From Solitalea canadensis DSM 3403 (lineage in GTDB: Bacteria; Bacteroidota; Bacteroidia; Sphingobacteriales; Sphingobacteriaceae): DNA of 64,000 bases. The stretch is from positions 744,001 through 808,000 of the forward strand of contig NC_017770.1 of NCBI RefSeq assembly GCF_000242635.2, given 5' to 3'. The notes under the pieces were generated by a model. That model ran no database searches, was not told the DNA's origin, and saw only the letters and a program-made list of their open reading frames with translations. The translations under genes were made by a program, and so were the position numbers. Below are positions 11,403 to 49,451 of the stretch, one piece after another; positions within the stretch are counted from its first letter, which is position 1, and each line of letters starts with the position of its first letter.

Positions 11403-11467
11403 TAATTGATTTAGGATCGAGAGAAATAATATGACATCTCATATCTCAAATCTAAAATCTAATTGAA

Positions 11468-17150: not shown

Positions 17151-17279
17151 ATGACAGAGAATCCCAATCGCTATGGTAAATTAGGCTTATGGCTTAAACG
17201 TATTGGCATCTGGGGATTCTTGTTTTTCCTGTTGAAAGGTTTGGCGTGGCTGGTGGCACTTTGGTGGGTTACGAAATAG
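17151..17279 (+). CDS. Small (42-aa) single-pass membrane protein downstream of nuoN
   Basis: A short ORF from ATG at 17151 to TAG at 17277. It begins hydrophilic (MTENPNRYGKLGLWLKRIG) and continues with one hydrophobic, Trp/Phe-rich segment (IWGFLFFLLKGLAWLVALWW), ending VTK. Positive residues precede the segment, suggesting the N-terminus stays in the cytoplasm. The first codons and their spacing look like a genuine gene, and similar tiny Lys/Trp-rich membrane proteins occur in Sphingobacteriia, but I cannot name a family. It may be co-transcribed with nuo and be an accessory subunit (speculative). Its stop codon touches the first unit of the downstream heptamer array. Confidence 0.55.
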   Translation: MTENPNRYGKLGLWLKRIGIWGFLFFLLKGLAWLVALWWVTK

Positions 17280-17370
17280 CTATTAGCTATTAGTTTTTAG
17301 CTATTAGCTGTTAGCCTCTATCAAAGTCTACTACTAAACTAACTGCTAAAAGCTAATCGCTAACAGCTAA
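17278..17370. repeat. Inverted heptamer array A1 (AGCTATT-type units)
   Basis: Left arm: consecutive 7-nt units AGCTATT, AGCTATT, AGTTTTT, AGCTATT, AGCTGTT at 17278-17312. About 30 nt later the right arm has CTGCTAA, AAGCTAA, TCGCTAA, CAGCTAA at 17343-17370, which are the reverse complement of the left units. ATTAGCTGTTAGC (17303-17315) pairs exactly with GCTAACAGCTAAT (17359-17371). The array could fold as a long cruciform or RNA hairpin. A second copy (A2) lies at 18881-18966. Confidence 0.85.
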
Positions 17371-17416
17371 TATCTTATCTATAATTTCTAATATTGCCGA
17401 CTCAAAAACACATCAA

Positions 17417-18882
17417 ATGCTTAAAAAAACCATTGCGACCTTAATGGTCTGTCTGCTATTCGTCCTAAACATCTATGGACAAAAAAAACGTTCAAAAGAT
17501 CTACATTAATCTGGGGAAATATGCTAAAGGAATAGCTATTCCTATCCAAAATGAGGCAGGTAAAACAACTCTTCTCATTTCTGATGAAGATAAGATTCAT
17601 TGTTGTTTATTGAATGATAGTTTACAGGTTGAATCTGTTCATTTGATTATGGATGATCCACGTTTATTATTTAAGAAAAAGCATTTAGGAAATTGCAAAA
17701 GGAAATAGGTACACCTTGTTCTTGTATGATAAAAGTATCAATAATGTAATTCGTTAAGTAATTGACTATGATTCAGCTGAAATTTCGAAAAAATATACCG
17801 TTAATGTAATGGGAAAGGATGAATCTTATTTAGATGCTGCTAACATGAATAATAAGGTGCAATTTATTACAGCCGATAAAAAAACGGGAACGGTCTATGT
17901 AAATGAAATCGATGAAGCAGGTAATAATTTAAAAACGCCTTTCAAATTCTTCGATATTAACAAACAAGACTTTGAAATAGTAAGTGACATTCTGTTTAGT
18001 TATAAAACCGATTTTACTAAAATAAGTTATGTCGGAGATATTAGCTTAAACACTACACAGGCAAATGAAAAAATGTATGCTTTTGATAATAAGATCATTT
18101 TTACTTACGATAAGTCAAATATTAACACTACTTATATTCTGACATTAGATTTAAACTCCAAACAATCCTCTTTGAGTAAAATAAGTCACTCAGATGTCCA
18201 ATTTAATGGGTTGGGAGACATAAAATATAACTCGTTTATTTTTAATAAGAAATTATTCCAGGTGTCGTCATCATACACTGCATTAAAACTATCTATAAAA
18301 GACCTTGCTACAGGCAACACAATTAAGCAGTATGAATTTGAAGAGAATAAAGACATTGCTTTTAAAAATGGTCCAATAATTCAAGATGGAAGTGCTTATG
18401 ACTCTGAACCGAGGGTGTTGAGCAAAAGCAATCAGTTACTGAGAAAAATCGCTAATTCAAAAGTAGCGGTAACGGCAAATAATAACAATGATTCAACCGT
18501 TTCGGTTACTATTGGTTCCTACCAAGAAATAAAATATGAAGGAGTGAGATTTAATAGTGGCGGTTTGCCAGGGATGGGATATAATGGAATTCCTATTGCT
18601 TCAATAGGAAATTCAATTACACTTAATGTCTTTGCTGCTCCTGGTTTATATAATTTTATGAATAATAAGACAACTAAGTCAGCTTATTTTAAAACCATAC
18701 TTCATAATGCAGATTTCTCCCACATTACAGGAGATACAAAGAAAAGTACATTCGATAGAATTAATGATTATGAAGATTCTCTAGAGAACGCTAAATCTAA
18801 TACAATGTTTGCTCAAAATGACGGATACGTTTATGGTTATTATAGCAGCGAAACAAAAATGTACAACCTGGTGAAATTTTAG
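17417..18882 (+). pseudogene. Decayed gene for a secreted protein of about 490 residues
   Basis: An intact signal peptide is encoded from the ATG at 17417 (MLKKTIATLMVCLLFVLNIYG) but runs into a stop at 17507. A +1-type shift at the A8 run near 17482-17489 connects it to a second frame (KNVQKIYINLGKYAKGIAIP…) that ends at 17708. A further shift near 17690-17700 leads to a third frame (GNRYTLFLYDKSINNVI), which contains an in-frame TAA at 17755 and then continues without interruption from about 17758 to 18882 (…DYDSAEISKKYTVNVMGKDE…). Three lesions make this a pseudogene unless the assembly is poor here. Product family not recognised; the C-terminal 360 residues look like a beta-rich secreted protein with no clear motif. 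It lies exactly between heptamer arrays A1 and A2. Confidence 0.7.
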
Positions 18883-18966
18883 TTTTAGCTATTAGTTGTT
18901 AGCATTTAGCTTTTAGTTAGTCACTACTAAAGTCTAATAACTAACAGCTAAAAGCTAATAGCTTCT
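18881..18966. repeat. Inverted heptamer array A2 (AGCTATT-type units)
   Basis: Left arm: AGTTTT then heptamers AGCTATT, AGTTGTT, AGCATTT, AGCTTTT, AGTTAGT (18887-18921). Right arm: AGTCTAA, TAACTAA, CAGCTAA, AAGCTAA and TAGCTT (18931-18964). Same units, same arrangement and same short central spacer (ACTACTAAA) as array A1. As in A1, the array begins at a TAG stop codon, here the stop of the pseudogene (18880-18882). Confidence 0.85.
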
Positions 18967-36687: not shown

Positions 36688-36692
36688 TTTTT

Positions 36693-36727
36693 AGTCCATA
36701 GTCCATGGTCCATAGTCGATAGTGTAT
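36693..36727. repeat. Heptamer array B, left arm (AGTCCAT units)
   Basis: Five consecutive 7-nt units: AGTCCAT, AGTCCAT, GGTCCAT, AGTCGAT, AGTGTAT. It starts 5 bp after the aguB stop codon. The segment 36692-36715 is the reverse complement of 37181-37204 with only two mismatches in 24, so it forms inverted repeats around the four-helix-bundle gene. Confidence 0.88.
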
Positions 36728-36792
36728 AAATTGAGGCTATAGAATGAATTGTTTAAAGTTGGTATATTTCGCCACTTAACATCTATTCTTTT

Positions 36793-37146
36793 ATGGCTTT
36801 CAAATTTGAAAATTTACTAGTGTGGCGATGGTCAATGGATTTGAACGAACTGATCAATAATTTAGCTAAAACATTTCCCAAAGATGAGTTGTATATGTTG
36901 ACTTCACAAATGAAAAGAGCTTCTGATTCAGTAGTTCTTAACATTGCAGAAGGATCAACTGGTCAAACTAATGCAGTTTTTAAACAATTTTTGGGTTATT
37001 CATTGAGATCTTTGATAGAAGTTGTGTCTTGTCTATTTATTGCAAAAAGACGAAATTATGTAGCAGAGCTTGATTTTGCTTGTTTATACGATAAGCATGA
37101 AACACTCAGTAAAATGATTACAAAGCTCAGAGATTCATTAAATTAA
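36793..37146 (+). CDS. Four-helix-bundle protein (23S rRNA-intervening-sequence/S23 family)
   Basis: A 117-residue protein matching the four-helix-bundle family named after proteins in 23S rRNA intervening sequences: 'FENLLVWRWSMDLNELINNLAKTFPKDELYMLTSQMKRASDSVVLNIAEGS', then 'FKQFLGYSLRSLIEVVSCLFIAKRRNYV' and 'LYDKHETLSKMITKLRDSL'. The 'Q(M/I)KRA…NIAEG' helix is the hallmark. Relatives include Avd, the accessory nucleic-acid-binding protein of diversity-generating retroelements; function of the stand-alone genes is unknown. It is placed between aguB and aguA and enclosed by the two arms of heptamer array B, which suggests an inserted unit. It has a separate TATATTTC -7-like box at about 36763. 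Confidence 0.9.
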   Translation: MAFKFENLLVWRWSMDLNELINNLAKTFPKDELYMLTSQMKRASDSVVLNIAEGSTGQTNAVFKQFLGYSLRSLIEVVSCLFIAKRRNYVAELDFACLYDKHETLSKMITKLRDSLN

Positions 37147-37182
37147 CGGTTTACATACTATTTACATAAAATATAGGCATCT

Positions 37183-37210
37183 ATGGACTATGGTCTATGG
37201 ACTATTGACA
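37183..37210. repeat. Heptamer array B, right arm (ATGGACT units)
   Basis: Four 7-nt units ATGGACT, ATGGTCT, ATGGACT, ATTGACA, the reverse complement of the left-arm units. The array supplies a spurious ATG at 37183 in frame with aguA, which can mislead start prediction. Confidence 0.88.
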
Positions 37211-37215
37211 AAACT

Positions 37216-38259
37216 ATGCAAGCGATAAATACTCTTCCTGCCGGCTACCATTTCCCTGCCGAGTGGGCCAAACATACTGCAACCTGGTTAAGCTGGCCTC
37301 ATAAAGAAGCTTCATGGCCGGGTAAAATTGATTCGATTTATCCTATTTATGCACAGTTTATTAAGGCTGTGGCTGAAGGGGAACAAGTTTATATCAATGT
37401 AAATGATGAACAAATGAAAGTATTCGCCACTTCTCAGTTAGAGAAGCAAGGTGTAGATCTTTCAAAAGTTTCTTTTTTTATACACCCAACTAACGATGCA
37501 TGGTGTCGCGACCATGGTCCGGCATTTTTGATTAATCCTACGGAGAAAAAGAAATTGATTGTAGACTGGGGGTATAATGCATGGGGTGGTAAATATCCGC
37601 CGTTTGATCTGGATGATGTTATTCCTACCCGTATTGCAAAACATTATGATATTCCAGTTTATTATCCTGGAATTGTGATGGAAGGCGGTTCAGTTGATTT
37701 TAATGGGGCAGGAACAGTTTTAACAACAACAGCGTGTTTGTTGAATGAAAATAGAAATCCTCATTTAAACCAGGGACAGATCGAAGATTATTTACGCAGT
37801 TTTTATGGTGTAGAACAAGTGCTTTGGTTAGGTGATGGTATTGTTGGAGATGATACTGATGGTCATATTGATGATATTACCCGTTTTGTGAACGAAGATA
37901 CAGTGGTAACGGTAGTGGAGCATAATAAAAGCGATGAGAATTATGAACTGTTGCAAGAAAACCTTCATGCATTAAATAAAATGCGTTTGTTGAATGGAAA
38001 ACAGTTAAATGTTATCGAATTACCTATGCCAGATGCCGTTATCTATGATGATATGCGCTTGCCGGCTTCGTATGCTAACTTTTATATTTCAAATGCGGCA
38101 GTAGTAGTGCCAACCTATCGTTCAAAGAATGATCAGCTGGCATTGGATATATTAACTAAGTGTTTCCCTGACCGAAAAGTAATTGGATTAGATTCAACAG
38201 ATATTATCTGGGGATTGGGAAGTTTCCATTGCTTAAGTCAGCAAGAACCTGCTGTATAA
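37216..38259 (+). CDS. aguA: Agmatine deiminase
   Basis: A 347-residue enzyme of the peptidylarginine-deiminase-like superfamily that converts agmatine to N-carbamoylputrescine and ammonia. Motifs: 'WAKHTATWLSWPHKEASWPG' at the N-terminus, 'RDHGPAFLI', 'MEGGSVDFNGAGT', 'GDDTDGHIDDITRF' (catalytic His/Asp) and the C-terminal 'GLGSFHCLSQQEPA' with catalytic Cys339. The start is put at ATG 37216 (MQAINTLPAGYH) because codons from 37183 are made by the heptamer array. It works with aguB upstream. Confidence 0.94.
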   Translation: MQAINTLPAGYHFPAEWAKHTATWLSWPHKEASWPGKIDSIYPIYAQFIKAVAEGEQVYINVNDEQMKVFATSQLEKQGVDLSKVSFFIHPTNDAWCRDHGPAFLINPTEKKKLIVDWGYNAWGGKYPPFDLDDVIPTRIAKHYDIPVYYPGIVMEGGSVDFNGAGTVLTTTACLLNENRNPHLNQGQIEDYLRSFYGVEQVLWLGDGIVGDDTDGHIDDITRFVNEDTVVTVVEHNKSDENYELLQENLHALNKMRLLNGKQLNVIELPMPDAVIYDDMRLPASYANFYISNAAVVVPTYRSKNDQLALDILTKCFPDRKVIGLDSTDIIWGLGSFHCLSQQEPAV

Positions 38260-49319: not shown

Positions 49320-49447
49320 GATTATGGGTTACGGATTACGAGTTACTGGTTATTATTAAATATCTATTTAGGTGTCTATGAGCCAATGAATCGTGAATTA
49401 ATAATGACTTTTTCTTAACCCGAAACACGCAACCAATAACTCGTAAT
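49320..49447. repeat. Inverted heptamer array C (GGTTACG-type units)
   Basis: Left arm: GATTATG, GGTTACG, GATTACG, AGTTACT, GGTTATT (49320-49354). Right arm: TCTTAAC, CCGAAAC, ACGCAAC, CAATAAC, TCGTAAT (49413-49447), the reverse-complement type (GTTxxxx). ATTACGAGTTACTGGTT on the left pairs with AACCAATAACTCGTAAT on the right with one mismatch. The 58-nt spacer has no gene. Same 7-nt period and inverted layout as arrays A and B but with different unit sequence. Confidence 0.75.
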
Positions 49448-49451
49448 TATC

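What the first reader, a model, noticed from the sequence alone, without database searches (positions are those of the whole stretch)
36692..37210. Four-helix-bundle gene enclosed by inverted heptamer arrays and lodged inside the agmatine-to-putrescine gene pair
Seen: the arms (36692-36715 and 37181-37204) are inverted with 22 of 24 matches, each made of 7-nt units (AGTCCAT/ATGGACT). Exactly one gene, a 117-residue S23/IVP-type four-helix-bundle protein, lies between them, and the unit separates aguB from aguA, which act consecutively. The right arm touches aguA and supplies a false start codon. Family knowledge: four-helix-bundle proteins of this type occur in rRNA intervening sequences and are related to Avd of retroelements, but stand-alone genes have no known function. 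Inference: arms plus gene may be a small mobile or domesticated nucleic-acid unit, with the protein possibly recognising the arrays. No clear target-site duplication was seen.
Basis: partly seen in the sequence, partly recalled or inferred. Interest (0 to 1): 0.8.

Follow-up and report, generated by a model that had tools for sequence, protein, structure and literature searches.

The report
Hairpin-armed four-helix-bundle genetic element
A small bacterial gene of unknown function sits between mirror-image runs of a 7-letter DNA word, and comparison with many genomes suggests that gene and runs form one unit that is tied to similar hairpins scattered through the same genome.

Summary
Confirmed, and general. 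A PF05635 (S23/23S rRNA IVP) gene at 36793-37146 lies between inverted heptamer arrays (36692-36723, 37181-37209) in the spacer of an aguB/aguA-like pair. All five PF05635 genes of this genome, and 137 of 189 non-redundant loci from many phyla (one inside a 23S rRNA gene), have complementary arms, against 16 of 327 control ORFs. The unit differs between loci, but the two arms match each other, with fixed polarity (126 v 6). Unit type follows protein lineage, also between unrelated sites. Gene-less hairpins of the same units are scattered in this genome; arrays are at background in the sampled genomes without the gene. Best reading: a mobile hairpin element whose Avd-like four-helix-bundle protein acts on its cognate heptamer stem; it works like RAYT/REP and is anatomically an intergenic relative of rRNA intervening sequences. 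Binding and movement are inferred. At this junction the lineage is long established (20 of 27 window-type loci read lie there); no target-site duplication could be read. No RVT_1 reverse transcriptase was found in this genome.

The parts
36692..36723 (+). left arm: tandem heptamer array, TAGTCCA type (G-rich 5' arm)
36793..37146 (+). four-helix-bundle gene, PF05635 / TIGR02436, 117 aa
   Evidence: AlphaFold2 pLDDT 95.8, four helices
37181..37209 (+). right arm: the inverted heptamer array (CTATGGA)
37183..37185 (+). ATG inside the right arm, in frame with aguA; probably not the start codon
35818..36687 (+). upstream neighbour, aguB-like (N-carbamoylputrescine amidase best hit)
37216..38259 (+). 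downstream neighbour, aguA-like (agmatine deiminase best hit)
17277..17392 (.). gene-less heptamer hairpin, TTAGCTA type, the unit of the resident PF05635 locus L004
18877..18963 (.). second gene-less TTAGCTA hairpin
49320..49450 (.). gene-less TTACGAG-type inverted arrays, the unit of resident locus L002; not seen in the same spacer of G001, G002, G003

Best explanation
Gene and arms are one genetic element. The arms can fold into a stem in single-stranded RNA or DNA. The protein, an S23/Avd-type four-helix bundle, recognises stems of its own unit type and promotes the copying or insertion of such hairpins, its own element and gene-less ones in trans, with host enzymes doing the chemistry. 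Spacers between genes, and tolerant RNA loops such as one in 23S rRNA, are where copies survive. Shown: the anatomy, its recurrence across phyla, matched arms, fixed polarity, linkage of unit to protein lineage, and arrays at background level in sampled genomes without the gene. Inferred: binding, the copying step, and whether RNA or DNA is copied.
For: Matched arms in 137 of 189 non-redundant loci, 171 with arms or a 7/8-nt array; control ORFs 16 of 327; named loci 52 of 75 v 4.5% of cross-locus pairs. Polarity 126 v 6 and, for gene-less hairpins, 26 v 0. Similar arms at unrelated sites: 2-3% of pairs at 25-55% protein identity, 12% at 55-65%, 10 of 16 at 65-80%. Off-junction window-type copies and the G001 junction copy fall in one subclade (SH-aLRT 84) and share TAGTTCA-type units, while most other junction copies have TAGTCCA- or AAGTCGG-type units. 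Of 32 gene-less arrays of this genome 20 match arms of its five resident genes; 0 of 300 random sets of five do as well. Arrays: 66 in 1480 kb of 21 genomes with PF05635, 4 in 920 kb of 14 without. (TAGTYCA)3 in 16 of 41 genomes with the window's protein type, 3 of 110 without; own-arm-only genomes set aside, 14 of 41. dN/dS median 0.10 over 35 pairs. Fold: 2gsc TM 0.94, 2rld, then Avd and chains of the DGR ribonucleoprotein. Presence and absence at orthologous junctions.
Against: No binding or movement was observed, and no target-site duplication could be read. No known catalytic domain was found. 52 of 189 loci lack matched arms at the threshold. 8 of the 21 gene-bearing genomes gave no array in the 20-40 kb sampled, and G000 and G043 hold 43 of the 66 arrays. 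25 of 41 genomes with the window's type lack the exact TAGTYCA pattern. GAGATNT arrays occur in G000, G003 and two genomes without any PF05635 hit (G076, G077), and are also weakly linked to the other protein type. Genomes and loci are related, so p-values are optimistic. The lineage's preference for one junction could also mean a host role.
Confidence: 0.58

Rival explanations
1. Host RNA regulator: the protein binds heptamer hairpins in its own and other transcripts and controls their cleavage or decay; the hairpins are a regulon rather than a mobile family.
For: Strong purifying selection; the window's type sits mostly at one metabolic junction in many genomes; arms stay complementary there although the units differ; arms fold as RNA.
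Against: Patchy presence and short empty junctions in relatives; location inside a 23S rRNA gene and between cas genes; unit changes with protein lineage rather than with site.
Confidence: 0.2
2. Passenger: another enzyme (for example a Y1-type transposase) makes and moves the hairpins, and four-helix-bundle genes are carried or preferentially inserted between arms.
For: The protein has no recognised catalytic domain; gene-less hairpins outnumber gene-bearing ones in this genome. Y1 transposases were not searched for.
Against: Unit type is tied to protein lineage; arrays fall to background in sampled genomes without the gene.
Confidence: 0.17
3. Avd-like accessory of a reverse transcriptase: hairpins are copied by a resident reverse transcriptase.
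For: Avd fold and DGR ribonucleoprotein chains among the Foldseek matches.
Against: RVT_1: 0 matches in G000, G001 and G003, all with the gene, and 16 in G002, without it.
Confidence: 0.04
4. Chance slippage repeats beside unrelated small genes.
For: Short tandem arrays can arise by slippage (general knowledge).
Against: The excess is at lags 7 and 8 only: 129 and 27 of 189 loci v 0-7 at lags 5, 6 and 9-13; matched arms and fixed polarity.
Confidence: 0.01

Closest known systems
23S rRNA intervening sequences (IVS) with an S23 ORF
   Same: S23-family ORF bordered by inverted repeats that form a stem. The Coxiella IVS has a 28-bp terminal stem and tandem heptamers (GACAGAT) before its ORF (PMC4990558, passages). 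The Azospirillum copy read here lies in a 23S rRNA gene and has inverted heptamer arms.
   Different: The window's element lies between protein genes, and has scattered gene-less relatives of the same unit in the same genome. RNase III excision was not tested here.
RAYT transposases and their REP/REPIN hairpins (recalled; REPs seen only in search listings and passages)
   Same: A single-copy protein gene linked to dispersed intergenic hairpins of a matching type.
   Different: The protein is a four-helix bundle, not a Y1 HUH transposase; the stems are 7- or 8-nt tandem arrays.
Avd of diversity-generating retroelements
   Same: Same fold by Foldseek (4dwl TM 0.79, 8ub7 0.76-0.81); resemblance of PF05635 to Avd is noted in PMC10053308 (passages).
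   Different: No RVT_1 reverse transcriptase in this genome.
Heptamer repeats of Cyanobacteria (STRR, trnL P6b), Xanthomonas (GGGAATC) and Beggiatoaceae (TAACTGA)
   Same: 7-nt units. Nostoc P6b stems are built on heptamers of unknown origin (PMC4476775, passages). Xanthomonas campestris ATCC 33913 has 70 convergent GGGAATC pairs (PMC4692102, passages); the solved S23 protein XCC0516 (2gsc) is also from X. campestris. TAACTGA repeats occur in Cyanobacteria and Bacteroidetes with no evident transfer mechanism (PMC4679880, passages).
   Different: None of the passages read links them to S23/PF05635 genes. Here the link was tested only beside genes on cyanobacterial plasmids: 11 of 11 loci have an array on at least one side (11 of 13 cyanobacterial records found).

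Membership tests
PF05635 / TIGR02436 four-helix-bundle family | profile score over the curated cut-off | tested here: met
   108.2 bits v 33.8 and 95.5 v 24
PF05635 / TIGR02436 four-helix-bundle family | four-helix-bundle fold of 2gsc/2rld | tested here: met
   pLDDT 95.8; 2gsc TM 0.94, 2rld 0.78-0.84; the ring of five was not modelled
23S rRNA IVS | S23 ORF bordered by complementary ends | tested here: met
23S rRNA IVS | located in a 23S rRNA helix | tested here: not met
   the window copy lies between aguB- and aguA-like genes; 1 of 20 loci given to Rfam is in 23S rRNA
23S rRNA IVS | excised by RNase III | not testable with these tools
   needs an experiment
REP/RAYT system | dispersed intergenic hairpins linked to a resident protein lineage | tested here: met
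REP/RAYT system | Y1 HUH transposase as the protein | tested here: not met
   the only Pfam family at E up to 0.001 is PF05635
Diversity-generating retroelement | reverse transcriptase with Avd | tested here: not met
   no RVT_1 match in G000
Diversity-generating retroelement | template and variable repeats | not tested
   not searched
Insertion sequence / MITE | target-site duplication | tested here: inconclusive
   empty junctions are too diverged to read breakpoints
Insertion sequence / MITE | transposase inside the element | tested here: not met

The most novel reading that the evidence does not exclude
A bacteria-wide class of mobile hairpins whose only protein is an S23/Avd-type four-helix bundle that recognises its own 7- or 8-nt unit. 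It would unite S23-coding rRNA intervening sequences, gene-less heptamer hairpins, cyanobacterial STRRs and trnL-intron heptamer stems, and Xanthomonas GGGAATC pairs as gene-bearing and gene-less forms of one system that spreads with no known transposase or reverse transcriptase.
Probability: 0.42. Interest if true: 0.94.

Novelty: new variant of a known kind. Interest (0 to 1): 0.84.

Why it matters
S23/IVP proteins have solved structures (2gsc, 2rld) deposited without a function, and the function and origin of rRNA intervening sequences are called unclear in PMC4990558 (passage). Heptamer repeats in Nostoc introns, Xanthomonas and Beggiatoaceae are described without a known origin or mechanism of spread (passages). 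A measurable link between gene type and array type makes these questions testable with one binding assay and one gene deletion. If movement is shown, it would add a kind of small mobile element that uses neither a known transposase nor a resident reverse transcriptase.

Tried and rejected
Reverse-transcriptase dependence: disfavoured for this genus. One universal unit: rejected, units differ between loci. Period 7 only: rejected, period 8 occurs too (27 of 189 loci). Strict single origin of the junction copies: a 158-row tree put 7 of 7 junction copies in one clade (SH-aLRT 99), but that tree lacked off-junction copies of the same type; with 20 more loci (19 in the tree) the 26 window-type rows form one clade (100) and the G001 junction copy groups with six off-junction copies (84), so I withdrew the stricter claim. 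rRNA location as the rule: rejected (1 of 20 loci given to Rfam). The reversed control of the TAGTYCA search is not a clean null: it hits 14 genomes and reads as another unit, GTATCAR, seen beside the PF05635 loci L037 (G043) and L182 (G023). A GGGAATC scan of viral contigs gave 3 stretches that led no further. The flanks of XCC0516 could not be read: with its sequence, plasmids gave only other taxa and phages none.

Limits: loci were mostly taken best-scoring first, so they are not a random sample of the family. Dropped rows: 5 of 80 (short flanks), 3 of 203, 11 near copies. Of 18 plasmid records found I fetched 12; the 4 Riemerella records were not read. Minus-strand loci were not turned, which does not affect the arm test. 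Arm-similarity pairs share loci. In this genome one of the five PF05635 matches (L004) has an internal stop.

Full report
The arms are inverted with 22 of 24 matches, both are period-7 arrays, and one 117-residue PF05635/TIGR02436 gene lies between them. The block fills the 528-nt gap between an aguB-like stop and the likely aguA-like start; those two names are best NCBIfam hits below the equivalog cut-offs. The right arm carries an in-frame ATG. As RNA the arms pair around the gene (z -4.36).

The anatomy is general. This genome has five PF05635 matches, one with an internal stop. All five have complementary arms, mostly with different units. Beside 51 loci of the genus and family (best-scoring first) lag-7 self-similarity averages 11.4 and 11.6, lags 3-6 and 9-13 stay at 3.7-4.2, and lag 8 is slightly raised (4.6, 5.2). 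Matched arms, own pair v cross-locus pairs: 44 of 50 v 14%, 23 of 29 v 7% across Bacteroidota, 52 of 75 v 4.5% in named genomes of many phyla, with 2 of 68 for distant flank pairs. Over 189 non-redundant loci 137 have matched arms and 171 have arms or a 7/8-nt array; other single lags give 0-7. Other ORFs of the same loci give 16 of 327 away from the gene and 31 of 308 next to it.

Other settings. On cyanobacterial plasmids 11 of 11 loci read have an array on at least one side; two of these genes lie between cas6 and cas4 and one between ribonucleotide reductase genes. Matched arms at the threshold occur in 7 of 12 plasmid loci, Azospirillum included. In Azospirillum lipoferum the gene lies inside a 23S rRNA gene (RF02541) with inverted heptamer arms.

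Polarity is fixed. An inverted repeat has the same polarity on both strands, so this is independent of orientation. The 5' arm has more G than C in 126 and fewer in 6 of 137 non-redundant loci. Of 36 gene-less arrays in 664 kb of this genome, 26 have an inverted partner within 220 nt, all 26 with this polarity; both arms of one hairpin can be counted, and control windows gave 2.

Gene and arms go together. In pairs without homologous neighbour genes in the flanks held, similar arms occur in 1-3% below 55% protein identity, 12% of 291 at 55-65% and 10 of 16 at 65-80%. The protein is under purifying selection (median dN/dS 0.10 over 35 pairs).

Scattered arrays. In 664 kb of this genome there are 36 lag-7 arrays apart from the finding, against 1-6 at eight other lags. 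Of 32 that are not simple, 20 match an arm of the five residents; random sets of five other family genes average 19%, and 0 of 300 do as well. Thirteen of the 20 match the window's arms best. A GAGATNT family (six arrays) has no resident partner. Fourteen genomes without PF05635 give 4 arrays in 920 kb, all in G002 and close to the mean of other lags (4.4); 21 genomes with it give 66 in 1480 kb (other lags 7.6), though 8 of the 21 gave none in their samples and G000 and G043 hold 43.

The link is type-specific, with exceptions. In 151 genomes (TAGTYCA)3 occurs in 16 of 41 with a protein like the window's and in 3 of 110 without; it shows no link to the L046 type (11 of 66 v 8 of 85). Setting aside two genomes whose only match is the gene's own arm, it is 14 of 41 v 3 of 110. 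GAGATNT goes with the L046 type (45 of 66 v 21 of 85), but also with the window's type (27 of 41 v 39 of 110), and occurs in 2 of 33 genomes without a PF05635 match. Genomes are related, so p-values are optimistic.

History at this junction. Of 47 genomes with an aguA match, 30 loci were read. Seven have the gene with arms or arm-like repeats (L052, L055, L059, L062, L068, L076, L081; own arm scores 13-27). Eight have a spacer of 1-29 nt (L061, L063-L066, L073, L075, L078), L072 and L074 also look short, two have no aguB nearby (L060, L080), and the rest hold other sequence, in several by eye a palindrome of another kind. Of 20 further loci with a protein like the window's, 13 lie at the junction and 7 elsewhere; 18 of 20 have matched arms. 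The 26 window-type rows of the tree form one clade (SH-aLRT 100). Six off-junction copies and the G001 junction copy form a subclade (84), and these seven carry TAGTTCA-type units, unlike the TAGTCCA- and AAGTCGG-type units of most other junction copies. In this part of the tree the unit follows the protein lineage rather than the site. G005 has such a gene elsewhere and an empty junction (L388, L075). Trees of so short a protein are weak.

Mechanism. The predicted structure is nearly that of 2gsc (TM 0.94) and close to 2rld, then to Avd and chains of the DGR ribonucleoprotein, which makes nucleic-acid binding likely, by inference. RVT_1 has no match in G000, G001 and G003 and 16 in G002. I conclude that the protein most likely recognises its cognate heptamer stem and that this promotes the spread or upkeep of such hairpins by host enzymes. 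A host regulator keeps about a fifth of the weight.

Literature. Nine searches of one open-licence library listed no paper that I could see to link PF05635 genes with heptamer arrays in general. Read as passages only: PMC4990558 (heptamers before the S23p ORF of the Coxiella IVS), PMC4692102 (70 convergent heptamer pairs in Xanthomonas campestris), PMC4476775 (heptamer stems in Nostoc trnL introns), PMC4679880 (TAACTGA repeats), PMC10053308 (PF05635-Avd resemblance), PMC10910872 (a figure legend listing 23S rRNA IVP), PMC11637426 (one IVP gene). Novelty is therefore put at a new variant of a known kind, the IVS; the genome-wide link is the new part.

Noticed in passing
window 17277-18963: Two TTAGCTA hairpins flank a 1.5-kb stretch downstream of a nuoN-like gene that holds a 357-aa ORF without a clear start; the neighbouring content differs in G001-G003.
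   Followed up: partly
L053, L054, L056-L058, L077, L079, aguB-aguA spacer: In relatives without the gene the same spacer often holds other palindromic-looking repeats (by eye), as if the junction tolerates hairpins of several kinds.
   Followed up: no
L142 and L152: PF05635 genes with heptamer arrays lie between cas6 and cas4 in Anabaena sp. 90 and Pseudanabaena galeata, with different units; a Science paper's legend lists 23S rRNA IVP among CRISPR-linked proteins.
   Followed up: partly
G002 (L374-L379): The congener without PF05635 and with almost no heptamer arrays has 16 RVT_1 matches, several near-identical in score; G000, G001 and G003 have none.
   Followed up: no
L059 and L081, start of aguA: The right arm appears to run into the first codons of the aguA-like gene, so array sequence may have become coding.
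   Followed up: no
window 11436-11462: A GAGATNT-type array without a detected inverted partner; this unit family has no partner among the five resident PF05635 genes.
   Followed up: partly
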